Shown: piece by piece, positions 435 through 12,258 of the stretch
How positions within the stretch are numbered: position 1 is the first letter of the stretch
How the letters are laid out: each line of letters starts with the position of its first letter
Source of the DNA: Phycisphaerae bacterium
GTDB taxonomy: Bacteria; Planctomycetota; Phycisphaerae; Sedimentisphaerales; Anaerobacaceae
Assembly: GCA_017993835.1 (NCBI GenBank)
Contig: JAGOLX010000004.1
Location: forward strand, 1-64,000
DNA length: 64,000 nt
Direction of reading: 5' to 3'
Position numbers and translations under genes: made by a program
The notes under the pieces: model-generated
Databases searched by the model: none
What the model was told of the DNA's origin: nothing
The model's input: only the letters and a program-made list of their open reading frames with translations

Positions 435-450
435 TACGAATTATTTCGTT
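435..450. promoter_or_regulatory. Upstream imperfect operator for the BlaI-type repressor (O1)
   Basis: TACGAAT, a 2-nt centre, then TTTCGTT (5 of 7 positions pair). It is the same half-site as the perfect palindrome at 458-473, with centres 23 bp apart, about two helical turns. This fits cooperative binding of two repressor dimers. Inferred as the autoregulatory site of the gene at 526. Confidence 0.55.
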
Positions 451-477
451 GATTTATTACGAATTCATTCGTAGACT
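449..477 (+). promoter_or_regulatory. Promoter of the blaI/M56 operon
   Basis: A -35-like TTGATT (449-454), a 17-nt spacer and a -10-like TAGACT (472-477) precede the repressor gene at 526. The perfect palindrome 458-473 fills the spacer and overlaps the -10, so a bound repressor would block RNA polymerase directly. Confidence 0.5.
458..473. promoter_or_regulatory. Perfect palindromic operator for the BlaI-type repressor (O2)
   Basis: TACGAAT at 458-464, TC at the centre and ATTCGTA at 467-473 form a perfect 7+2+7 palindrome between the putative -35 and -10. MecI/BlaI repressors are known to autoregulate through dyads of this size next to their own promoters. That this family member uses it is inference. 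Confidence 0.6.
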
Positions 478-525: not shown

Positions 526-915
526 ATGGCGCGAAAGAAAAGCAGCGGACCGACGGATCGGGAAATGGCCATTCTGGGCGTGCTGTGGGAGAAGGGCCCG
601 AGTACGGTCCGAGAGGTCCACGAGGCCCTCGACGCCGATTCCCAGACCGGCTACACCACCACGCTCAAGCTCATGCAGATCATGGTCGAGAAAGGTCTGC
701 TCGTCCGCGAGGACGACGAGCACAGGCGCGGACACGTCTACCGGCCCGCCCTGTCGGAGGAGCGGACGCAGAAGCAGCTCATCCAGGACCTGCTCGACCG
801 GGTCTTCGCGGGCTCCGCGGAGAAACTGGTCATGCGGGCCCTGTCCGCGAGAAAGGTCTCGCCCAAGGAACTCAAACGAATCCGGGAGATGTTGGATCAA
901 ATGGAGGGAAAGTGA
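526..915 (+). CDS. BlaI/MecI/CopY-family transcriptional repressor
   Basis: A 129-residue winged-helix repressor of the MecI/BlaI family. The N-terminal half reads like the family helix-turn-helix (DREMAILGVLWEKGPSTVRE, then a YTTTLKLMQIMVEKGL recognition-helix region). The C-terminal helices match the dimerisation part. Length is normal for the family (about 120-130). The ATG at 526 has an AGGAG-type ribosome site at about 513. The gene ends with TGA at 913-915, only 2 nt before the ATG of the M56 protein at 918, so the pair is cotranscribed and probably translationally coupled. In this family the M56 partner senses a signal and leads to repressor cleavage or inactivation. Two palindromes sharing the TACGAAT half-site lie upstream. 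The regulon and inducer are unknown, and there is no beta-lactamase gene here. Confidence 0.9.
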   Translation: MARKKSSGPTDREMAILGVLWEKGPSTVREVHEALDADSQTGYTTTLKLMQIMVEKGLLVREDDEHRRGHVYRPALSEERTQKQLIQDLLDRVFAGSAEKLVMRALSARKVSPKELKRIREMLDQMEGK

Positions 916-917
916 GT

Positions 918-3900
918 ATGTCACTGTGGCAAGGTCTGCTTTCCGAAGGCGTGGTCGTCCGGCTGGGCTGGACGCTCGTACACTTCCTGTGGCAAGCGAC
1001 GGCGGTCGCCCTGCTGCTGGCGCTGCTGCTGAGATTGCTGCGACGCGCCACCGCGAATCTGCGCTACGCGGCCGCCTGCGGGACGTTGCTCCTGATGATG
1101 GCGATGCCGCTGGTCACGATGCAATTCATCGACGTCCCGGGGCCTGTAGCGGAGGGGGGCCCCTCGCTTGAGGTCGTGACACCGCCAATGCCGGTGGTCA
1201 TGCAGACCGTGGATGCGTTGCCGCCGTTGCCTGCCGCATCTCCCATAGAGGTGGCAGACCTGACCGTCTCGGTCCCCTGGCGTCAGAGGCTCGCGACCGC
1301 CCTGGAGCCTGCGCTGCCCTACATCGTGCTCGGCTGGCTCGCCGGCGTCTTCGGCCTGTCCGCCTGGCACCTGGGCGGCTGGGCCCAGTTGCAGCGATTG
1401 AGACGCCGGATGGTCCGCGAAGCCGGCGACACCCTGCACACGACGCTGGACGAGCTTGCGACCCGTCTCCGCGTCCGTCGGGCGGTGACCCTGCTCGAAT
1501 CGGCGCTCGTCGAGGTCCCCACCGTCGTGGGCTGGCTAAGCCCGACGATCCTGTTGCCCGCCAGCGCCTTGACCGGCCTGAGTCCCGACCAGTTGAAGGC
1601 GATCCTCGCCCACGAGCTGGCCCACATCCGACGGTACGACTACCTCGCGAACATCGTGCAGACCGTGGTCGAGATCCTCGGCTTCTACCACCCTGCGGTC
1701 TGGTGGGTCTCACATCGGATCCGCATCGAGCGGGAGAACTGCTGCGACGACCTCGCAGTTCGCGTCTGCGACAATTCGCTCCAATACGCGAGGGCCCTGG
1801 CGTCGATGGAGGAGATCCGACACAGCCGGAGCGAACTGGCGATGGCCGCCAGCGGCGGCAGTCTGATGGCACGCATCGCGCGCCTGCTGGGCCGGCCGGT
1901 CGTGGACGACCGGCGTTTCACCTGGCTTCCCGGCTTGATCGCCCTGCTGCTCGTCGTCGGCGTCGTGATCCCCGCAGCGTTCGCGCTGACCCGTTCGGCC
2001 CCGCGTGAGCCCGAATCCCAGGGTGATGCCACCTCTGCCTCGGCGACCGAGAGTCAAGGTGCGCCAGATTCTCCCGAATCAACCCAGACTCAAATCCAGG
2101 TCACGCTCGTCCTGGCGGAACTCTATGCTGACGCGGTGCTCGATCCGCAGACAGCCGAGGAAGCGGCAGGGCTCCTGGTACGCATCTCGGCCCACGACGG
2201 CGAATCCATCCCCCCGCCGACCCGCGAAGAGCTTCGCCGGCCTTTGGCGGACGTATTGTCCACATTCACACCCGCGCCCGGCCGGGCCAGGGAATTCGTC
2301 GATCTGCTGCGCCGCAAGAAGGATTGTGTGGCACGCACGTTGTCCGCTCCCCGAGTGACGAGTCTGTCGGGCGAGTCGCTGCAATTCACGATGGGCGACA
2401 TCCCGAGCCCCGATGAACCGCTGCCCCAGGACGATGAGTTCATCTTCGTGCGATGCGCCATGACCGCTACGCAGGTCTCGGACCAGAATGCTGTCCGGAT
2501 GGCTATCGACATGGTCCGGATGTACCCTGCCTACGAGCCTTCCGAGCCGAATGGACGAACGGCAACGTGGACGCTCGATACCACCATGGTGGCGGCCAAC
2601 AACGAGTGGATGACAATCGCTGACAAGCTCCTCAGACGATTGGACAGCAGCGGAAGGAAATGCATCCAACTGCCGCTGGTCCTCGCGACAATCGTTCCCA
2701 ACTCCGAAGCAAGGGATATGGACGCGCCGGGCACCGTGCCCATGATACCCTCGGCAGACGGCACCATTCACCTGCCGCCAGGCATGGGCGGCTTGCGTCC
2801 GACGACGTCGCCTGACCCGATTGCCGCTCCACAGCCCAGCGTACCCGCGCCGGACGAGCCCGCTCGCACACAAGTGCTGTTGGCGTTCACAGTCCTCGAT
2901 GTCGTCACTGATCGTCCGCTCGACGCGGACGCAGCGGCCCAGGCCAGACACTCCCTGATGAGAGAGCAGCCCACCGAAGGCAGCACAGCTTCCGCTTCTG
3001 CGGTGCCGCCGCTCGTGGAGGAACTCCTGCTGCCCCTGCGGGACATCTTCACCCGGTTCGCACCGATCCCCGAGAAGAGCAAGGAACTCACCGATCTGCT
3101 GATCTCAAGCGGCTATGCGACGATACTGAGCAAGCCCATGATTCTGACCTTCGCGGACGAGCCAACGTCCCTCTCGCTGGGAGAGCCGGACGATCCCAAT
3201 GCCGCCAACGGGTACATACGTTTGAGCGTCACAGCCCACGTGCTGGACGACCGAGACGCCACCCGATTGGAAATCGACTACAGAGATCGGCGCGCAATAG
3301 ACGATTCCGACGATCCGAACCGCCCCATGTCGAGCACGCAGATCGCCTCCACGCTCGTGGTCCCCAACGACGAATACGCAGCCATCGTCGGGCTGAACCC
3401 CAGCGCGCCTGCCGACAACATGCGCATACTGCTGATCGGCCCGACAAAGGTCTATCGACCGCAACGCGCCGCAGAGCAGGACCCGAACGCAAACGCACAA
3501 TCGAGGAGCGACGAGCCCAACTCAAGTTCGACCGCGGGATCTACCGCTCAGGCTGAAGAAAGCCGCAGTCGCCCTCGCCAGATTCTGTTGGACACGCGTG
3601 TGGTGGAGATAGACCATAGCAGCCTGGCGTCGCGGGGGGTCGAATGGGACTCTGCGTTACAGACAATCTCGCTCGGCGACAAGCCATTCGCAGATACCCT
3701 GCTGGCGAGACTGAACCAGCTTGAGGCCACCAAGCAGGCGCAGATCGTGTCCCATCCGCAGTTGGTTGCCCTGGATGGACGCATGGTGCAACTGCGATCC
3801 TTTGAACAAGAGTGGTTCATGACAACCGATCCGTCCGCCTCGCCTGCGGAATTCCAGCAGAAAACGGAGTCCGGAACGATCCTGAACATCACGCCACATG

Positions 3901-6116
3901 CGGGAGACAGCAACGAGATCACGGTCGATGTGGAGGTCGAGATCATCGAGGTGTTGCAGCCTGAACGAGGTCCCGGCGACTTGCCCATCGTGACACGCCG
4001 TAAGGCCCAGAGCAGAATCACCGTGAGAAACGGCGGCACCGCGGCCATCGCCGGGTCGGTCAATGCCCCCGGCATGCAGAAGGACAAAGCTCCCAAAGAA
4101 AACGTCATCCTCGTGACGGCGAGTCTCGTCCCAGAGACGAGCGAGGTTACTCACCCTGTGCAAACAGGCCGAGCTCGTGCAGCCCAGTCAGAAGACTCGG
4201 GAGCCCTGTACGGGCGCGTGCTGTTCGAGGACGGCACGCCGGCAGTGCTCCAGCCGGCTCCCAGGCCGGGGGCACACACCCGGATCGCACTGGCCATGAA
4301 AGGCAGGAGCACGGAGGTCGCCCAGGTGGATGACGAGGGGTACTTCGTGCTGCGCCTGGAGGACACACAACGAGAGGCACTCGCCGCCCACAGGGAGGGC
4401 GTCCACCTTTGCATCGATCTGCCGACCGATCGCAAATACCCCTGGGAGGGCGTGGGCGTGTTCCCATTTGAGAAGCTGGCCAAGACCAGGCAGGATGCCG
4501 GCACGATCACGGTGAGACGCACGCTGCCGACGATCACGTTGCCGATAGAGCTGCGCCGGGGCGGTCCGCTGCCGGATGGATGGCGTTTGGAGTATCGACC
4601 CACCCCGGCTACCGGCAGGATCGAGGAGATCCTGTTCAATGCCGAGGTGGTCGATTCGCATTTGGGTCTGAAGGTTGGCGAGTTACCGGGCGACGAGGAA
4701 TTCGTGGTCTACGACCCGAATGGCAAGGAAGTCGAGAGGTTCCGAAGCCAATCCATGATGGCGATGTACAAGACCGTGCGATACACGCTGATCGGGCGGA
4801 AAGGCGAAGGCCGGAATGCCGACGACTGGCGGATCGTCCATGGCCCGTACATCTTGGACATGACTCGCTCCGGCTGGTACAAGCTGACCATCGACCTTGG
4901 GGCAATCCCCGAGGCAGACTCCCAGGACGAAGACCCGAGCGGTGTGACGCCATCGCGGCACTCAACCATCACGACGGCATTCACGAACATCGATCTACTC
5001 AAGGCACTGGGGGAAATCAGTAGGTGCTCTGGTGTGACCATCGCGGTTGATCTTGCGGTCAAGCCGCAGCCAATCACTGTCGAACTGGTCAACGCATCCG
5101 TCGAATCGGCGATCCGGCAAATCCTCAAGGGGACTCCCTACACGTTCAAACGGCAGCCTGAGACCGAGCCGGCAACTTATCTGATCTATCGTCCGATCAC
5201 GGCCACGTTCGAAGACGCCGATCTGCCGGAGGTCCTGCGGGACATTGCCCGCAAGGCCGAGGTGCCGATCATCGTTGATCCTGATGTCCATGGCCGAGCC
5301 TCCGCCCAGTTCGAGGATGTACAACTGGAGAAGGCATTGGAGATTGTACTGGCGGGTACGCCCTACAAGCTCAAGAGGACAGCGAGTCATTACCTCGTTG
5401 CAGAGGACCCCTCTGCAACCAGATTGCCTCCCCTCTCACAGGATCAGAGGACATCCCCAGGGCAAGAGCAGGCGCCGTCCCAGGCGTGGACGATTATGCA
5501 ACGTGCGGGTTGCCCGCCGCTGCTGTTGGGACTTACGCAGCAGCTTGCCAAGGTGCTCGATCCGTCGCGGCAGAACGATCCGGCGTGGAAGGAAGTCAAC
5601 AACGGCGGTACGCTTCGCGTACAGGTAGATGTCGGAGGGAAGGATGCGGGCGAAGTGCTCATCGGTCTCTTTGCCGATGCCCGATGGCCGAAAGAGCCCG
5701 TGGCGGTGCGCCGGGTCGCCGGCTCGGGCGAGCACGTGCTGACCGGCCTGCCCGCCGGGCAATATCAGATCGGTGCAATGATCGGCAAGCCGCCGGTCGC
5801 GACCATGCTCGGCGTCCAGCGGCAATGGCCGCAAGAGGTCGAGATCGTGCGGGGTCAGACAAGAACGGCCGAAGTATTTCTCTCGGAAGCGTTCCAGCAA
5901 TGGGCATCCGGCTGGTACAACGAGGGGGTCTCGAAGGACTACCTCGGGGACTGGAGCGGACTGCATCAGAACCGCCAGCTCCAGGGCCAGCTCCTCGGGC
6001 CAGATGGCCAACCCATCCGCTTTGGCGAGGTCCTCGTCCGCGAGTACAAGGACCCCTCCCGCAGACAAGGCGGCATCGCAGCCCCGAACATCGGGACCAG
6101 CGAGCAGGGTTACTAG
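918..6116 (+). CDS. Giant M56 (BlaR1-like) metallopeptidase antirepressor with secretin-like and STN domains
   Basis: 1732 residues, far longer than BlaR1 (about 600). The N-terminus has hydrophobic membrane segments and an M56 zinc-peptidase domain: HELAH at residues 232-236 and the family motif RENCCDDLAV near 270-280. After a further membrane segment (about 335-350) the chain is probably periplasmic. Two related segments follow (from about 390 and 650), then a secretin-like beta domain (about 886-1075, ending in GTAAIAGSVN). Next are a module starting LYGRVLFEDGTPA (about 1095-1335), two STN-like repeats (about 1354-1500; FTNIDLLKALGEISRCSGV and FEDADLPEVLRDIARKAEV) and a regulatory-type beta sandwich. 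ATG 918 is chosen because it directly follows blaI; an in-frame GTG at 912 overlaps the blaI stop. The frame ends at TAG 6114-6116, but homology-like sequence continues in the same frame to 7325. Role: signal sensor for the upstream repressor; the ligand is unknown. Confidence 0.8.
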   Translation: MSLWQGLLSEGVVVRLGWTLVHFLWQATAVALLLALLLRLLRRATANLRYAAACGTLLLMMAMPLVTMQFIDVPGPVAEGGPSLEVVTPPMPVVMQTVDALPPLPAASPIEVADLTVSVPWRQRLATALEPALPYIVLGWLAGVFGLSAWHLGGWAQLQRLRRRMVREAGDTLHTTLDELATRLRVRRAVTLLESALVEVPTVVGWLSPTILLPASALTGLSPDQLKAILAHELAHIRRYDYLANIVQTVVEILGFYHPAVWWVSHRIRIERENCCDDLAVRVCDNSLQYARALASMEEIRHSRSELAMAASGGSLMARIARLLGRPVVDDRRFTWLPGLIALLLVVGVVIPAAFALTRSAPREPESQGDATSASATESQGAPDSPESTQTQIQVTLVLAELYADAVLDPQTAEEAAGLLVRISAHDGESIPPPTREELRRPLADVLSTFTPAPGRAREFVDLLRRKKDCVARTLSAPRVTSLSGESLQFTMGDIPSPDEPLPQDDEFIFVRCAMTATQVSDQNAVRMAIDMVRMYPAYEPSEPNGRTATWTLDTTMVAANNEWMTIADKLLRRLDSSGRKCIQLPLVLATIVPNSEARDMDAPGTVPMIPSADGTIHLPPGMGGLRPTTSPDPIAAPQPSVPAPDEPARTQVLLAFTVLDVVTDRPLDADAAAQARHSLMREQPTEGSTASASAVPPLVEELLLPLRDIFTRFAPIPEKSKELTDLLISSGYATILSKPMILTFADEPTSLSLGEPDDPNAANGYIRLSVTAHVLDDRDATRLEIDYRDRRAIDDSDDPNRPMSSTQIASTLVVPNDEYAAIVGLNPSAPADNMRILLIGPTKVYRPQRAAEQDPNANAQSRSDEPNSSSTAGSTAQAEESRSRPRQILLDTRVVEIDHSSLASRGVEWDSALQTISLGDKPFADTLLARLNQLEATKQAQIVSHPQLVALDGRMVQLRSFEQEWFMTTDPSASPAEFQQKTESGTILNITPHAGDSNEITVDVEVEIIEVLQPERGPGDLPIVTRRKAQSRITVRNGGTAAIAGSVNAPGMQKDKAPKENVILVTASLVPETSEVTHPVQTGRARAAQSEDSGALYGRVLFEDGTPAVLQPAPRPGAHTRIALAMKGRSTEVAQVDDEGYFVLRLEDTQREALAAHREGVHLCIDLPTDRKYPWEGVGVFPFEKLAKTRQDAGTITVRRTLPTITLPIELRRGGPLPDGWRLEYRPTPATGRIEEILFNAEVVDSHLGLKVGELPGDEEFVVYDPNGKEVERFRSQSMMAMYKTVRYTLIGRKGEGRNADDWRIVHGPYILDMTRSGWYKLTIDLGAIPEADSQDEDPSGVTPSRHSTITTAFTNIDLLKALGEISRCSGVTIAVDLAVKPQPITVELVNASVESAIRQILKGTPYTFKRQPETEPATYLIYRPITATFEDADLPEVLRDIARKAEVPIIVDPDVHGRASAQFEDVQLEKALEIVLAGTPYKLKRTASHYLVAEDPSATRLPPLSQDQRTSPGQEQAPSQAWTIMQRAGCPPLLLGLTQQLAKVLDPSRQNDPAWKEVNNGGTLRVQVDVGGKDAGEVLIGLFADARWPKEPVAVRRVAGSGEHVLTGLPAGQYQIGAMIGKPPVATMLGVQRQWPQEVEIVRGQTRTAEVFLSEAFQQWASGWYNEGVSKDYLGDWSGLHQNRQLQGQLLGPDGQPIRFGEVLVREYKDPSRRQGGIAAPNIGTSEQGY

Positions 6117-6128
6117 CACTTCGACGGG

Positions 6129-7325
6129 ATGGGATGGCCCTATTTCGTGCTCGCCAGATGGCGGGACCCCATGCCTTCCGTGTTCGGCTGCCGTTCTCAA
6201 CTGATGAAGTTGAAGCGAGTCATGGAAGGCCCGCAACAGGTGGACTTCAGGTTCAAGCCCTTCCCGGCAGGCACGGCCAAGGTGGCCGGTCGCGTAACGG
6301 ACCAGGAAGGACAATCTGTCCGAGGGTTCTTCCTCCATGTCACGACGCCACCCATCTCTGCACGGCAATCCGAGAACATGGATGGAGGATATGAGACCAG
6401 TATCGCCTATGAAGTGCCGTTCATCTCTGAAGAGGGTCGGTTCGAGCTGGGTGGATTGCCGGATGGGCCCGCGCAAGTGTACCCCTGGCCCTTCGACAGC
6501 CAGAAGTACGAGATCCAATGGGGCAGGGAGACGACGCTGGCAACAGAAGGTACAACCATGATGGACTTCGAACTGGTTCGCCCGCAGGTGCGTTCTTTGT
6601 ATGGGCGCGTGCTCTTCGAAGACAGCACACCAGCGACCCCTCAGCCGGCCCCCTGGCCCGGCGCAACGACCCGAATCGTGACGTGCCGGCACACCTTCCC
6701 TGTGAGGGCGGGCGCCTCCGCGGACTTGGACGCGGACGGCTATTTCACGCTCAAGTTGCGGAAAAACCAGTACGAACTGCTTGCCAGCGGCGAGCATCAG
6801 CTACTCATCGGTCTGCCCAACCCGGACCGGCATGGGTGGCGGCCGTCGGGTGAGTTTCCGTTTGACAAACTGGCGGAGGATCGAGCCCAGGCCGGCGTCG
6901 TGAGGGTCAAACGTCTCATGCCGGCGCCTGTGTTCCAGGGTCAACTGGGACCGGGGACACCGCTGCCACCGGGGTGGCGGCTGGACCGCAAGAATGCCAG
7001 CGCGAGATCAGTCGGAGAAGACGCGTATTTCAACGCCAAGGTCACCGCATCGAATCCACAAGAGGGAGCGAAACCCGAAGACCTGGAGTTCGTGATCTAC
7101 GATCCCAACGCCAAAGAGGTCGAGATCTTCAAAAGGCAGTCCATGATGATCATGCCCAAGGCCCAGCAGTACAGACTGATCACCAGGCAGGTCAAGGACG
7201 GGCGAGTCACGCACGGGCCGTTCCTCTTGGACATGACCCAGCCGGACTTCTACGAGTTGATCGTGAACCTTGGCATCAGCTCTGAGCCGGACGCAAAGAG
7301 CAAAGGACAGAACGTTACAGAATAG
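6129..7325 (+). CDS. Detached C-terminal part of the M56 sensor, beyond an in-frame TAG
   Basis: 398 residues in exactly the same frame as the preceding gene, separated from it by one TAG (6114-6116) and 12 nt. The sequence continues the broken domain: the upstream frame ends TSEQGY, and this part resumes within four codons as MGWPYFV. From about residue 155 it carries a second copy of the module seen before the stop: LYGRVLFEDSTPA, then EFPFDKLAEDRAQAG, FVIYDPNAKEVE and GPFLLDMTQ. There is no ribosome site before the ATG at 6129. It has no signal peptide, so if translated alone it would stay in the cytoplasm. The simplest reading is a nonsense mutation of a Tyr or similar codon, or a base-call error, in a protein of about 2130 residues. 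Programmed readthrough is possible but unproved. Confidence 0.6.
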   Translation: MGWPYFVLARWRDPMPSVFGCRSQLMKLKRVMEGPQQVDFRFKPFPAGTAKVAGRVTDQEGQSVRGFFLHVTTPPISARQSENMDGGYETSIAYEVPFISEEGRFELGGLPDGPAQVYPWPFDSQKYEIQWGRETTLATEGTTMMDFELVRPQVRSLYGRVLFEDSTPATPQPAPWPGATTRIVTCRHTFPVRAGASADLDADGYFTLKLRKNQYELLASGEHQLLIGLPNPDRHGWRPSGEFPFDKLAEDRAQAGVVRVKRLMPAPVFQGQLGPGTPLPPGWRLDRKNASARSVGEDAYFNAKVTASNPQEGAKPEDLEFVIYDPNAKEVEIFKRQSMMIMPKAQQYRLITRQVKDGRVTHGPFLLDMTQPDFYELIVNLGISSEPDAKSKGQNVTE

Positions 7326-7521: not shown

Positions 7522-10500
7522 CTACGGCTGGCCCGGCGTCGGAGCGGCCGCTTGCCAGTTGGCTGGGTCGTTGCCGCTGCTTGCCGCGTCGAGATTGACC
7601 TTCACCAGCGAGTTGCCTTGGCCGTCCGCGCCGGAGGGCCAGGGGGCCGCATCGCTGTAGACCACCTCGTCCACGACCACCCAACCGTCGGCGTCTGTCA
7701 AGTCCTCAGCAGGCAGTGTCTTCTCCAGAACCAGGCGCTCGCCGGCATTGGACAGGTCACCCTGCCAAGGACCGAAGATCTGGACACCCGCGGTCAGTCC
7801 CGCACCGTCCGCGACGGCAACAAGCGCCGCCAGTCGGGAGGTCTCCACAGCCGGGTCGAAGCCAACGACCACCACTCGCCCACCCGCGGGGATCGAGGCC
7901 CCTGTCGGGAAGCCGTATTCCACCGCGCCGTCCAGACGCCAGACGATGTCCCCCTCGGACAGTGTCACGGCCTGACTCGTCGGGTTGTGCAGTTCGACGT
8001 ACTCGTCGTTCGGATCGATCGGATGGTACATGACCTCGGAGATCATCACGTCGAGGATGGGAGTCGCGTTTGTCAAGCCTTTCGAGGGCGTCATCCGCAG
8101 CCAGTACGCCCCGCCATCGGGGTAGCGGCCGCGACTGATGTCCGGCTCCTGGGCCTGGAACGAGACCGCGTCCACGATCCGGTCCTCGCCCGTGCCAGGC
8201 AGGTAGGAGAGCACGACCTCTTCGCCGTCCCAGGCGAGGCCGAAGCCGTCGAGGTTGTCGAAGGCCTTGCAGCCATTCGCTGGGATGGAACCGGAAGGAA
8301 TCGCCCACTTCGCAGGCTCGGACACGTCGTCGCTGAGGTACCAGCCTGCCAGGCTCACCGCGGAAGCGGTCGGATTATACAGTTCGATCCAGTCCCCGCC
8401 GCTGGTCGCGTTGGCCATGAACTCATTGATGACAAGCGTCTGCGCTGGCGCGGGATCGTCCTGGCCGGGCGAACCGTCGGGATACGTGCTCGCCCGCCAG
8501 TTGCCGCGGTAGTTCAGAGATCCCTGAGGCTCACCTGCCAGCGCCGAATCGAGCGGCACGAGCGAGTGACCGCCGCCGTCGGCCCAGATCGGCCAGAGCG
8601 AGCCATCGCCATACTCGAAGTCGGCGATCATGCCGTTCCAGTAGTCCACGAGCGTGACCTGCTCGCCACTGTTGGTCAGCTTGCCCTCGTACTGGCCTGC
8701 GATGAGGCTCGAAAGGGCCGAGCCGTAGCGGGACTCGAATGCGGTCTGGTTCCTGACCACCAGGACGAACTGTCCGGCGTCGAGCGTCGTGACCGCGCCG
8801 CTGGCGAAGTCGAAGGCGATCCCGTTCGTAAACGAGACGTTGCCCAGATCGAGGGGCTCGTTGCCCGTGTTCTTCAGTTCGATGAACTCGAACTCATCAC
8901 CGTCGAGCGCATCGCTGGGCGCGGGGTTGTACATCAGCTCGGTGACTCGCAGGTCCGCGAGTGTCCCGGTTGCGACGGGCTCACCCGCGACGAACTGGAC
9001 CGGGCTGGACCAGTGGCTCCATCGGCCGCTAGTATCCTTCATCTTGCAGCGGACGCGGTAGGTACCGCCCGGCGTGACCACGAAGCCCGGGATCGTCACG
9101 CTGCTCTGGAATGTAGTCAGCTCGTCGCTCTCCCAGGCCGCGTTGATTTCGTACTTGCCTGGGGTCTTCTCGTAGACTGCATAGGTCGCCGTGGCGGTGG
9201 ACCCGCCGCCCGACGTGGTGGATGCCTCGGCCGTCAGTCGGACATCGACGAAACAATCCGAGCTGCTATGCGAATTGTTGAGCACCTGGACTGCGATCAC
9301 GTTCTTGCCCTGAACCAGGCGGGCGGACGGATCGCCAAGCCCATACTCCCGGAAAGTTGAATCCTCGATGGAGGACGGCGCAAAGGCATTGTAGGCCGGT
9401 TCCGCGGAAGCGACGTTGTCCTGATAGATGAGAGCACCGTTAAGCCAGACGTTCACGCCGTCGTCATACAGGACCTCCAGAAGCAGATCGCCGAGACCGC
9501 TGAGGTTGCTCACGTTGAAGGTCTTTCGCAGGTAGATGGTGCTGTAAGCGCCGGGCATATCGCTCAGATTGGTTGCGACGATGGCTTCGCGAGTGTCGTA
9601 GCCGATGGGCGCATTGCCGGTGAGCCATGAGGAATCGTCGAAGCTCGGGAGCCGCCAGGCGCCGGAGGCGGTCGAGGGCTCCGAGAGGCCCTTGAAATAG
9701 CGCCACGAGGCGCCGCTCGAGACCAGCGTCGTGCCACTGCTGGTCCCGGTGGTCGTACTGGTGGTCTGTGCATGGGCACCGGCGCTCACCTCGCCGATCC
9801 GCCACTTCATCGCGGCGAAGGTGCCCGTCCCCTGCGGATCGCTGAACCCGCTCGTTTCGAATGTCAGGGCATTGGCGGGGAAATCGCTGGAGCAGGTGGC
9901 TGTCACTGCCGGCGTGCTGGGCGCCGACGTGTCCTCCTTATACGTGTTGAACTCGCGATTGCCGGACACGATGTAGTTCTTCATGATCTGGACCATGCCA
10001 CGGAAGTCCTTCGTGGAGGCCTCCTGGTAGAACCGCCCCTGGCCGGCCTTGCTCGGATTCACGTAGCCTGAGGCCAGGATCGGGTTGTAGTCCCACATGG
10101 CGCGGTCGGCACCGACGAAGGTCGGGCCGCCGGTCGGCGGGTCGATGATGTTCGCCAGGTCGTCGAGCATCTGGTACGCCTGGTCGCTGTTGTAGAGCAG
10201 GTCGTGGAACTCGCGGAGGCGATTGCGGTACTCCAGGAGGATGTTGGCGTTGTTGAAGATCGCGCCGTTGGATTTGAAGACATCCTCGCCGTTGCCGTAC
10301 ATGCTGTTGGCCCAGGTCAGGTCCACGTCCCAGGGCAGCATGGTCCACACGTTCGTCTCGGGATTGAGATAGAAGAACCAGTTCTTGCCGTAGCCGATGT
10401 CGCCGTGATGGACGCCTTCCACGACACAGCGGTAGGCGTAGTAGGCGTCGAGATGGACGTTCTGTCGCCACCAGGTCTCCTGGGGCCTGCTGTTGTAGCC

Positions 10501-12174
10501 GCTCATGAAGGCGGTGAGATCGGAGCCGTTGCTGACGGCCGTCGGGCCCTCGTTGTTCAACTCGCCACCCCCTTCGATCTTGTACAGGTTCCCGTCGGGC
10601 AGGCCATGCTCATCGAGGAATCGGCCGTCCATCTGCTCGATGGTCATGTAGAGCCCCCAGAAGTCGCCCTCGTACTGGGTGGCGCCGACCTCTGCGGCCT
10701 CGTCGATCACGCGGAAGTGTACCCAGCTCGTCTTTGGAGCGTCGCAGCCCATCAGGTTGAAGAGCTTGAACGAGGCGGCTTCGAACATGCCCTGCTCGCC
10801 GCGATGGTCGTAGTCGCCCTGCTGGATACAGGCAGAGAAGTTGATCTTGGCCCATTTCGTGTCGTATTTGCGGCCGTAGTCGTCGCGAGCCTGGAAGTAA
10901 TGGCCGCGATTGAGATCGAATTTGATCATATTCTTGCCCATGGAGTAGCGCCAGACGCCGCCGCGGGCTCGGAAGTGGATGTGGTCGTAGACCTCGCCAT
11001 CGTAGACGAGGGTCCCCGCCCACGGGTAGTCGCTGCCGCCGTACTGGCCCTTCTTGGCGCCGGGCATGTAGAGGGCGTCGACGACGTCCTGCTTCCTGGC
11101 GATCAGGTGGTAGACCGGCAGACTCTGCATCACCTCGGCGCTGTAGGTCACGGCAGTCTGGCCGGACCTAACCGCCCCCTGCCAGGCAGGCACCCCGTCA
11201 TAGACGAAGTAGGCGAAGTTCGGCTGCGGATCGTCCTCATAGGGAACCGTCACAAAGCCCCCGAGGGCGTCCACCGCAACAATCTTGTAGCGGACGAGTC
11301 GGCGGTGTTCCTGCACCGACGCGGGGATCTGGACGCTGAAGACATCGTCTCCGGCGGCGGCATCGCCGTCGAGGCCGTCGTCGTGCATTGTCTCCGTCGT
11401 CCAGTTCGCGCTGTATCGCGTGTCGTCGATCGTGACATAGGTGCCGGGCTCGACCACCTGGTACATCAGTCCGACGCTCCGGATGCCATCGAGGGCGGTG
11501 ATCTTCGCGGTGATCGTCACGACCTGGCCGGACGCGGGCTGCTTCGGCGAATGCGCCACCTGCCGAATCGCAGGGTCAGTGCCGACGGACAGGACCACAC
11601 TGTTGGCGGCCATGGGCGTGGGCAGCGCGGACCGCCAATGGCCCCCGAGGTCGTTGTCCGCGGCGGGGTCGATCAGTTGCATGGAACCGCCTGTGCCCGC
11701 GGCGCCGGAGATCGGATCTCCGACCGTGGGCCAGGGGAAACCGAGCTGATAGGTGACCTCGTCCACGGTCTGACCGGCCGCATCGCAGAGAACCACGGAG
11801 TCGCCCTCGTTGTCCAGTTTGCCGCCGAACGGTCCCAGGACACGAGAGGCGTAGGCCGCCTGTTTCAGCGTGGTCCACTTGGCCTTGACGTCGGCCAGGT
11901 CCTGGACCACGATCAGATAGCCGCCTGCCGGCAGGCTCGTCCCCGCGGAGAAGGTGAAGAAGACGCCGCCGTCCAGCACCCAGCCGTCCAAGCTCACGGC
12001 CTCCGTCCCGATGTTGTACAGTTCGACGAACTCGACCTGCTCCGTCTTGACGTCGGGATCGACGTGCAGCTCGTTGATGACCACGTTGGCAGCCGCCTGC
12101 GTCGCAGAGGCACCGAGGAAACAGAAGACCACCGCCAGAACGACGAGAGATGTGAACCTTCTTGATGTGAGCAC
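7522..12174 (-). CDS. Exported CotH-kinase-like protein with several lamin-tail domains
   Basis: 1550 residues. A signal peptide (SLVVLAVVFCFLGASATQA) is followed by a lamin-tail domain (NVVINELHVDPD...), a beta domain, and a CotH-like kinase domain from about residue 345 to 640. Typical signatures there are MIKFDLNRGHYF, HGDIGYGKNWFFY and LPWDVDLTW. Then comes a galactose-binding-like region (about 825-975), a Fn3-like stretch, and three more lamin-tail domains starting near 1070, 1243 and 1373. CotH domains phosphorylate spore-coat proteins in Bacillus; in planctomycetes they appear in large secreted proteins of unknown target. The GTG at 12174 is preferred over the TTG or other upstream starts because AGGAACAGGA precedes it and the signal peptide then sits at the N-terminus. 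A good promoter lies at 12259-12288. Confidence 0.82.
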   Translation of the reverse strand: MLTSRRFTSLVVLAVVFCFLGASATQAAANVVINELHVDPDVKTEQVEFVELYNIGTEAVSLDGWVLDGGVFFTFSAGTSLPAGGYLIVVQDLADVKAKWTTLKQAAYASRVLGPFGGKLDNEGDSVVLCDAAGQTVDEVTYQLGFPWPTVGDPISGAAGTGGSMQLIDPAADNDLGGHWRSALPTPMAANSVVLSVGTDPAIRQVAHSPKQPASGQVVTITAKITALDGIRSVGLMYQVVEPGTYVTIDDTRYSANWTTETMHDDGLDGDAAAGDDVFSVQIPASVQEHRRLVRYKIVAVDALGGFVTVPYEDDPQPNFAYFVYDGVPAWQGAVRSGQTAVTYSAEVMQSLPVYHLIARKQDVVDALYMPGAKKGQYGGSDYPWAGTLVYDGEVYDHIHFRARGGVWRYSMGKNMIKFDLNRGHYFQARDDYGRKYDTKWAKINFSACIQQGDYDHRGEQGMFEAASFKLFNLMGCDAPKTSWVHFRVIDEAAEVGATQYEGDFWGLYMTIEQMDGRFLDEHGLPDGNLYKIEGGGELNNEGPTAVSNGSDLTAFMSGYNSRPQETWWRQNVHLDAYYAYRCVVEGVHHGDIGYGKNWFFYLNPETNVWTMLPWDVDLTWANSMYGNGEDVFKSNGAIFNNANILLEYRNRLREFHDLLYNSDQAYQMLDDLANIIDPPTGGPTFVGADRAMWDYNPILASGYVNPSKAGQGRFYQEASTKDFRGMVQIMKNYIVSGNREFNTYKEDTSAPSTPAVTATCSSDFPANALTFETSGFSDPQGTGTFAAMKWRIGEVSAGAHAQTTSTTTGTSSGTTLVSSGASWRYFKGLSEPSTASGAWRLPSFDDSSWLTGNAPIGYDTREAIVATNLSDMPGAYSTIYLRKTFNVSNLSGLGDLLLEVLYDDGVNVWLNGALIYQDNVASAEPAYNAFAPSSIEDSTFREYGLGDPSARLVQGKNVIAVQVLNNSHSSSDCFVDVRLTAEASTTSGGGSTATATYAVYEKTPGKYEINAAWESDELTTFQSSVTIPGFVVTPGGTYRVRCKMKDTSGRWSHWSSPVQFVAGEPVATGTLADLRVTELMYNPAPSDALDGDEFEFIELKNTGNEPLDLGNVSFTNGIAFDFASGAVTTLDAGQFVLVVRNQTAFESRYGSALSSLIAGQYEGKLTNSGEQVTLVDYWNGMIADFEYGDGSLWPIWADGGGHSLVPLDSALAGEPQGSLNYRGNWRASTYPDGSPGQDDPAPAQTLVINEFMANATSGGDWIELYNPTASAVSLAGWYLSDDVSEPAKWAIPSGSIPANGCKAFDNLDGFGLAWDGEEVVLSYLPGTGEDRIVDAVSFQAQEPDISRGRYPDGGAYWLRMTPSKGLTNATPILDVMISEVMYHPIDPNDEYVELHNPTSQAVTLSEGDIVWRLDGAVEYGFPTGASIPAGGRVVVVGFDPAVETSRLAALVAVADGAGLTAGVQIFGPWQGDLSNAGERLVLEKTLPAEDLTDADGWVVVDEVVYSDAAPWPSGADGQGNSLVKVNLDAASSGNDPANWQAAAPTPGQP

Positions 12175-12258
12175 GTTGCGTCCTGTTCCTTTTGGTTTCT
12201 TTGTACGCTGGGCTGCCGAGGCAATCCACAACCAACATCCGCCCTCGCAGTTCTGCTT

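What the first reader, a model, noticed from the sequence alone, without database searches (positions are those of the whole stretch)
918..7325. BlaR1-like antirepressor fused to secretin-like, STN and duplicated modules
The M56 peptidase is followed by about 1400 more residues: two related N-segments, a secretin-like beta domain, two STN-like repeats, and two copies of a LYGRVLFEDxTPA module. STN and secretin domains normally work in outer-membrane secretion or TonB signalling. Fusing them to a protease that controls a repressor suggests sensing of an envelope or secretion state rather than an antibiotic. I know of no described system of this layout.
Basis: partly seen in the sequence, partly recalled or inferred. 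Interest (0 to 1): 0.7.

Follow-up and report, generated by a model that had tools for sequence, protein, structure and literature searches.

The report
Antirepressor protease with secretin-like sensor tail
In a group of uncultured planctomycete-type bacteria, the membrane protease that normally switches on antibiotic-resistance genes carries, in place of the antibiotic sensor, a tail built from pieces of the pores used to export proteins, so it may watch the state of the cell's own secretion machinery.

Summary
The layout is mostly real. A BlaI-type repressor gene (526-915) is followed by a BlaR1-type M56 protease ORF (918-6116, 1732 aa) with an intact HELAH motif and a ~1370-residue tail. 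The tail holds a PF00263 secretin domain and two STN domains; predicted folds agree with both. One correction: an in-frame TAG at 6114-6116, at a position that is Tyr in the closest full-length relative, cuts off the last 402 residues (second LYGRVLFED copy), although homology and codon usage continue. Two operators (ACGAATTNNTTCGT, 23 bp apart) lie before blaI. That tandem occurs once per genome in 10 of 89 family genomes; in most of those loci the M56 protein carries secretin-like modules. Outside this operator group secretin tails were seen only in close M56 relatives. The genome has 16 other M56 genes, 14 other BlaI genes and 11 other secretins. No described system of this layout was found in the held literature. 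Best reading: an autoregulated BlaI/M56 switch with a secretin-derived periplasmic sensor. The cue (secretin or envelope assembly state) is inferred, not shown. A new variant of a known kind.

The parts
436..449 (.). operator dyad 1, ACGAATTATTTCGT
   Evidence: conserved with its partner in 10 genomes
459..472 (.). operator dyad 2, ACGAATTCATTCGT, starting 23 bp after dyad 1
526..915 (+). BlaI/MecI-type repressor (Penicillinase_R, 129 aa)
   Evidence: PF03965 E 9.4e-28
918..6116 (+). BlaR1-type M56 antirepressor with secretin/STN tail, 1732 aa; start codon 2 nt after the blaI stop
918..1952 (+). M56 metalloprotease and membrane part, residues 1-345; HELAH at residues 232-236
   Evidence: PF05569 E 4e-29; HELAH invariant in the 9 aligned sequences
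1932..1988 (+). last predicted membrane segment (residues 339-357), after which the tail should be extracytoplasmic
   Evidence: hydropathy scan; topology from BlaR1 (PMC9834060), inference
2088..2717 (+). N-segment 1, degenerate secretin-like domain (residues 391-600)
2868..3527 (+). N-segment 2, degenerate secretin-like domain (residues 651-870)
3579..4166 (+). secretin beta domain (residues 888-1083), without the VPxLGxxPxxG motif
   Evidence: PF00263 E 5.5e-17; PDB profile hits all secretins, best GspD E 7e-19; model and fold search; motif scan
4203..4937 (+). LYGRVLFED module, copy 1 (predicted beta-sandwich domains)
4965..5195 (+). STN domain 1 (residues 1350-1426)
   Evidence: PF07660; fold match to FecA signalling domain and an anti-sigma factor
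5187..5417 (+). STN domain 2 (residues 1424-1500)
   Evidence: PF07660; FpvA Z 11.5
5460..6113 (+). 'QAWTI' module (residues 1515-1732), 53% identical in G002 and 46% in G035 over its best-matching stretch
6114..6116 (+). in-frame TAG stop; Tyr at this position in G002
6117..7325 (+). same-frame continuation after the stop, 402 aa, CarboxypepD_reg-like then LYGRVLFED copy 2 (6594-7307)

Best explanation
This is a self-regulated BlaI/BlaR1-type switch whose penicillin sensor is replaced by a periplasmic tail assembled from secretin beta domains and STN domains. BlaI sits on two operators and holds down its own operon. The tail, on the outer side of the inner membrane, meets a periplasmic protein partner, most likely secretin subunits or other envelope assembly parts, through secretin-to-secretin or STN contacts. 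That changes the membrane part, activates the cytoplasmic M56 protease, removes BlaI and opens the operon. Shown by sequence or structure prediction: the gene pair, an intact protease motif, the conserved tandem operators, the secretin and STN folds, and recurrence in relatives. Inferred: topology, protease action on BlaI, partner, cue and output genes.
For: BlaI and M56 domains; catalytic HELAH and ERENCCDD invariant in 9 aligned sequences; operators exactly once per genome as a 23-bp tandem in 10 of 89 family genomes, 0 in the reversed-pattern control, and upstream of the blaI-M56 pair in the loci read; M56+secretin fusion in the window, G002, G061, G062, G064 and G065, in G032 in a second overlapping frame, and further out in G015, G031, G037 and named MAGs; secretin-bearing M56 rows cluster on the M56 tree, 4 changes against 13.4 shuffled; secretin and STN folds; the window secretin module groups with the organism's own ligA-linked free-standing secretin family (99% SH-aLRT); tail under purifying selection against G005 (dN/dS 0.30 and 0.47; M56 0.19); the cell holds 11 other secretins and 18 T2SSE matches. 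Precedent for a response that recognises secretins at the inner membrane: the Psp response (PMC5596341).
Against: No target gene other than the operon itself is established. The tail varies greatly in length and module order between relatives, and other M56 proteins carry quite different tails (WD40, LRR, CarboxypepD, HEAT), so a tail need not have a precise partner. The window copy has a premature stop and the G005 and G032 copies have frame breaks. G003's protein has a tail of only 213 residues without a secretin.
Confidence: 0.45

Rival explanations
1. The tail is a general extracytoplasmic scaffold or small-ligand sensor: in these bacteria M56 proteins take up any periplasmic or surface domain by shuffling, and the secretin and STN modules have no special link to secretion.
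For: Other M56 tails in the own genome and in Planctomycetota are WD40, LRR, CarboxypepD, HEAT, SecDF_P1_head and beta-helix; module order differs between relatives; the secretin modules mostly lack the channel motif (27 of 30).
Against: Secretin-type modules recur 1 to 4 times per protein through one M56 clade, more than expected of random uptake, and one set stays close to the organism's own secretin.
Confidence: 0.35
2. The window gene is decaying: the stop at 6114 marks a gene being lost, and the tail no longer matters here.
For: In-frame TAG at a position that is Tyr in G002; frame breaks in G005 and G032; higher dN/dS in the tail than in the protease.
Against: HELAH, operators and all secretin/STN modules lie before the stop and are intact; the downstream frame is still coding-like; tail dN/dS is below 1; single breaks in draft metagenome assemblies can be errors.
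Confidence: 0.15
3. It is an outer-membrane secretin channel that acquired an inner-membrane protease, and still forms a pore.
For: PF00263 match and GspD-like fold; G002 carries STN, Secretin_N and a secretin domain in the native order.
Against: In the window the domain stops at profile position 124 of 169 while every other secretin in the genome reaches 167-169, the motif is absent, a segment present in relatives is missing, and the protein is anchored through M56.
Confidence: 0.05

Closest known systems
BlaR1/BlaI and MecR1/MecI of Staphylococcus and Bacillus
   Same: BlaI-type repressor next to an M56 membrane protease with HExxH; palindromic operators upstream of the pair
   Different: No penicillin-binding sensor domain; a secretin/STN tail of about 1370 residues instead; no beta-lactamase or mecA gene seen under the operators
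Secretins GspD/PilQ (PF00263)
   Same: Secretin beta domain and N0-type STN domains by profile and by fold
   Different: Tied to an inner-membrane protease, modules reordered and repeated, most lack the VPxLGxxPxxG motif
TonB-dependent signal transducers FpvA/FecA/PupA with FecR-type anti-sigma factors
   Same: STN signalling-domain fold (Z 11.5 to FpvA); envelope-to-transcription signalling by regulated proteolysis (last point from general knowledge)
   Different: No TonB plug or barrel matched; the partner is a BlaI repressor, not an anti-sigma/ECF pair
Phage shock protein (Psp) response to mislocalised secretins (PMC5596341)
   Same: Would be a switch at the inner membrane that responds to secretins
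   Different: As generally known, Psp uses neither an M56 protease nor BlaI nor a secretin domain of its own; only the proposed cue is shared, and here it is untested

Membership tests
BlaR1/MecR1 antirepressors | M56 domain with HExxH zinc site between membrane segments | tested here: met
   PF05569 E 4e-29; HELAH invariant in 9 aligned sequences; hydrophobic segments 20-38, 50-71 and 339-357
BlaR1/MecR1 antirepressors | adjacent BlaI/MecI repressor gene and operator dyads upstream | tested here: met
   PF03965 E 9.4e-28; tandem dyads
BlaR1/MecR1 antirepressors | C-terminal penicillin-binding sensor domain | tested here: not met
   Pfam scan of the whole 1732-aa protein at E up to 1 lists none; NCBIfam blaR1_generic matches residues 28-309 only, 93.5 bits against a cut-off of 400
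BlaR1/MecR1 antirepressors | signal-dependent removal of BlaI | not testable with these tools
   needs biochemistry
Secretins (PF00263 channels) | secretin domain by profile and fold | tested here: met
Secretins (PF00263 channels) | complete C-terminal part with the VPxLGxxPxxG motif | tested here: not met
   profile positions 2-124 of 169 only; motif absent in window
Secretins (PF00263 channels) | outer-membrane multimer | not testable with these tools
   needs membrane fractionation and gels
TonB-dependent signal transducers | STN domain | tested here: met
   PF07660; FpvA Z 11.5, rmsd 1.4 over 73
TonB-dependent signal transducers | TonB plug and 22-strand barrel | tested here: not met
   no plug or receptor family listed in the Pfam scan at E up to 1

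The most novel reading that the evidence does not exclude
A regulated-proteolysis switch that reads the state of the cell's own secretins: a tail made of secretin domains docks onto free, misplaced or partly assembled secretin subunits at the inner membrane and relays this through an M56 protease to a BlaI repressor.
Probability: 0.27. Interest if true: 0.75.

Novelty: new variant of a known kind. Interest (0 to 1): 0.58.

Why it matters
BlaR1-type proteases are known as antibiotic sensors. A clade whose sensor part is built from secretin and STN modules would extend them to monitoring envelope machinery, in cells that carry a dozen secretins. Across 33 sampled M56 proteins the tails range over quite different domain types, which suggests a general exchangeable-sensor receptor family in Planctomycetota, testable with one reporter design.

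Tried and rejected
Reading 918-7325 as one protein: rejected, in-frame TAG. Programmed frameshift as a common cause of the broken frames: rejected as unlikely; shifts differ in direction, and the L104 break lies in a run of N. Wider regulon: single dyads elsewhere were not seen at the same genes across genomes, except one that overlaps the start codon of an ECF sigma gene in G000 and G005 only; left as a lead, and most of the single sites were not examined. The careful M56 tree did not finish; the quick one is used. Literature searches for M56/BlaR1 with secretin or with Planctomycetes gave no description of this layout. Fold searches matched the LYGRVLFED and QAWTI modules only weakly to beta-sandwich domains, so no function is claimed for them. 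The distribution rests on one M56 clade and a sample of other M56 proteins, not on all M56 proteins.

Full report
What is there. The window starts at the beginning of contig C111 of a 6.37-Mb draft genome. A BlaI-type repressor gene lies at 526-915 and an M56 protease gene starts at 918, two bases after the repressor's stop codon. The M56 frame ends at a TAG at 6114-6116, giving 1732 residues, and continues in the same frame to 7325. The finding's single 918-7325 protein is therefore interrupted. In G002, a same-genus relative, the matching position is Tyr and the frame is open for 1957 residues. Coding-type GC by codon position persists after the stop. A recent nonsense mutation and an assembly error are both possible.

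Domains. Pfam gives M56 (E 4e-29), Secretin (E 5.5e-17) and STN (E 3.7e-11). The two N-segments have no Pfam match. An alignment of them with relatives matches an alignment of secretin domains by profile comparison at E 3.7e-7, 93% probability, and its best PDB match is a type II secretin, chain 5wln, at E 2e-5. The secretin alignment matches only secretins in the PDB, best E 7e-19. The window therefore holds three secretin-type domains and two STN domains.

Structure. The model of residues 381-1095 has modest confidence (mean pLDDT 65.7, 12 sequences) but repeats one order of helices and strands three times. Foldseek's 40 best PDB matches are secretins or complexes that contain them, and VIA-align gives Z up to 11.5 to GspD, with rmsd 4.0 over 135 residues for the third module; some InvG rows align with N-segment 1 (Z 10.7, rmsd 6.1). 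The model of 1096-1732 (mean pLDDT 75.1) has STN domains at high confidence, matching the FpvA signalling domain (Z 11.5, rmsd 1.4 over 73 residues), anti-sigma regulators, FecA, and secretin N0 domains.

The fused secretin modules differ from real secretins. The VPxLGxxPxxG motif, searched by a loose pattern, is absent from 27 of 30 fused modules (one of these keeps a truncated form) and present in all five free-standing secretins of the ligA-linked family. In the own genome the window match is the only one of 12 that stops at profile position 124; the others reach 167-169. The window module also lacks a segment seen in relatives. A pore is unlikely.

Regulation. Two dyads, ACGAATTATTTCGT and ACGAATTCATTCGT, start 23 bp apart at 436 and 459. 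The same tandem occurs once in each of 10 of 89 family genomes and never in the reversed control: four genomes of this genus, one of genus g25 and five of g48. In the loci read it lies upstream of a blaI-M56 pair. Of the 14 other BlaI genes of the genome, those with a clear dyad have a different one; one, at C26, again has two dyads 23 bp apart. This supports a repressor specific to its own operon.

Distribution. Among the ten operator genomes, M56 proteins with secretin domains are seen in the window, G002, G061, G062, G064 and G065. In G032 the secretin lies in a second overlapping frame. G005 shows N-segments and then a frame break. G063 is cut by the contig end, and G003 has a 213-residue tail without a secretin. 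Outside the operator group, secretin tails occur in G015, G031, G037 and MAGs L102, L104 and L109. On a quick M56 tree of 106 rows the 14 labelled rows need 4 changes against 13.4 in shuffles; 13 of them fall in one 15-row fork and G037 in a sister fork. No secretin-bearing row appears among M56 proteins of other phyla by the local profile, and PF00263 is not among the 25 commonest families of 33 other M56 proteins.

Origin of the modules. On a quick tree of 35 secretin domains, the window module, two G002 modules, one module each of three g48 proteins, a G032 module and the five free-standing ligA-linked secretins form a 12-row group (99% SH-aLRT); the C-terminal modules of g48 proteins fall elsewhere. 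At least two kinds of secretin module were thus combined, one close to the cell's own secretin.

Selection. Against G005, dN/dS is 0.19 for the protease, 0.30 for N-segment 1 and 0.47 for N-segment 2: constrained, though less than the protease.

Mechanism. From BlaR1 (PMC9834060), the metalloprotease domain faces the cytoplasm and the sensor lies outside. By analogy the secretin/STN tail is extracytoplasmic. The most likely chain is: BlaI represses its operon, the tail meets a periplasmic partner, the protease is activated, BlaI is removed. A secretin-related cue is plausible because the modules are secretin domains, one set is close to the organism's own secretin, the genome holds 11 other secretins and 18 T2SSE matches, and mislocalised secretins are a known inner-membrane stress cue (Psp, PMC5596341). 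It is not shown. The main rival is that tails are exchangeable scaffolds, as other M56 tails of WD40, LRR or HEAT type suggest.

Limits. All relatives are draft genomes, many of them metagenome-derived; both trees are quick ones; pLDDT of the secretin model is modest; the literature library lacks most subscription journals, and the two papers cited were used from their abstracts.

Noticed in passing
L076 (G000:C75:9879-9892) and L206 (G005:C68:1499-1512): A perfect dyad ACGAATGTATTCGT overlaps the start codon of an ECF sigma-factor gene in two same-genus genomes; it could be a second BlaI target or merely conserved coding sequence.
   Followed up: partly
G000, 17 M56 places, e.g. L065 (C12): The genome has 17 M56 matches and 15 BlaI genes; one M56 protein is 3376 aa long with SecDF_P1_head, HEAT and beta-helix domains.
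   Followed up: partly
L057 and L059: The QAWTI module of the window tail also occurs in proteins that hold a thioredoxin-like AhpC-TSA domain.
   Followed up: no
L091, L102, L104 tails: Tails of related M56 proteins hold segments like 'GTNVLFNDGHVEF', resembling the H-x-DG motif of planctomycete pseudopilin-like proteins (recalled from memory).
   Followed up: no
L238 upstream of the C26 blaI paralogue: Another BlaI gene has two TGTTAC-GTAACA dyads, also 23 bp apart.
   Followed up: no
L056, L058, L067, L068: A secretin gene lies close to the NAD-dependent DNA ligase gene in several genomes of the family; in L056 it has repeated beta-type N-terminal domains, STN and a complete secretin domain.
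   Followed up: partly
window 7522-12231, minus strand: A 1569-aa ORF on the opposite strand whose translation looks, by eye, like a secreted CotH/lamin-tail-type protein; no search was run on it.
   Followed up: no
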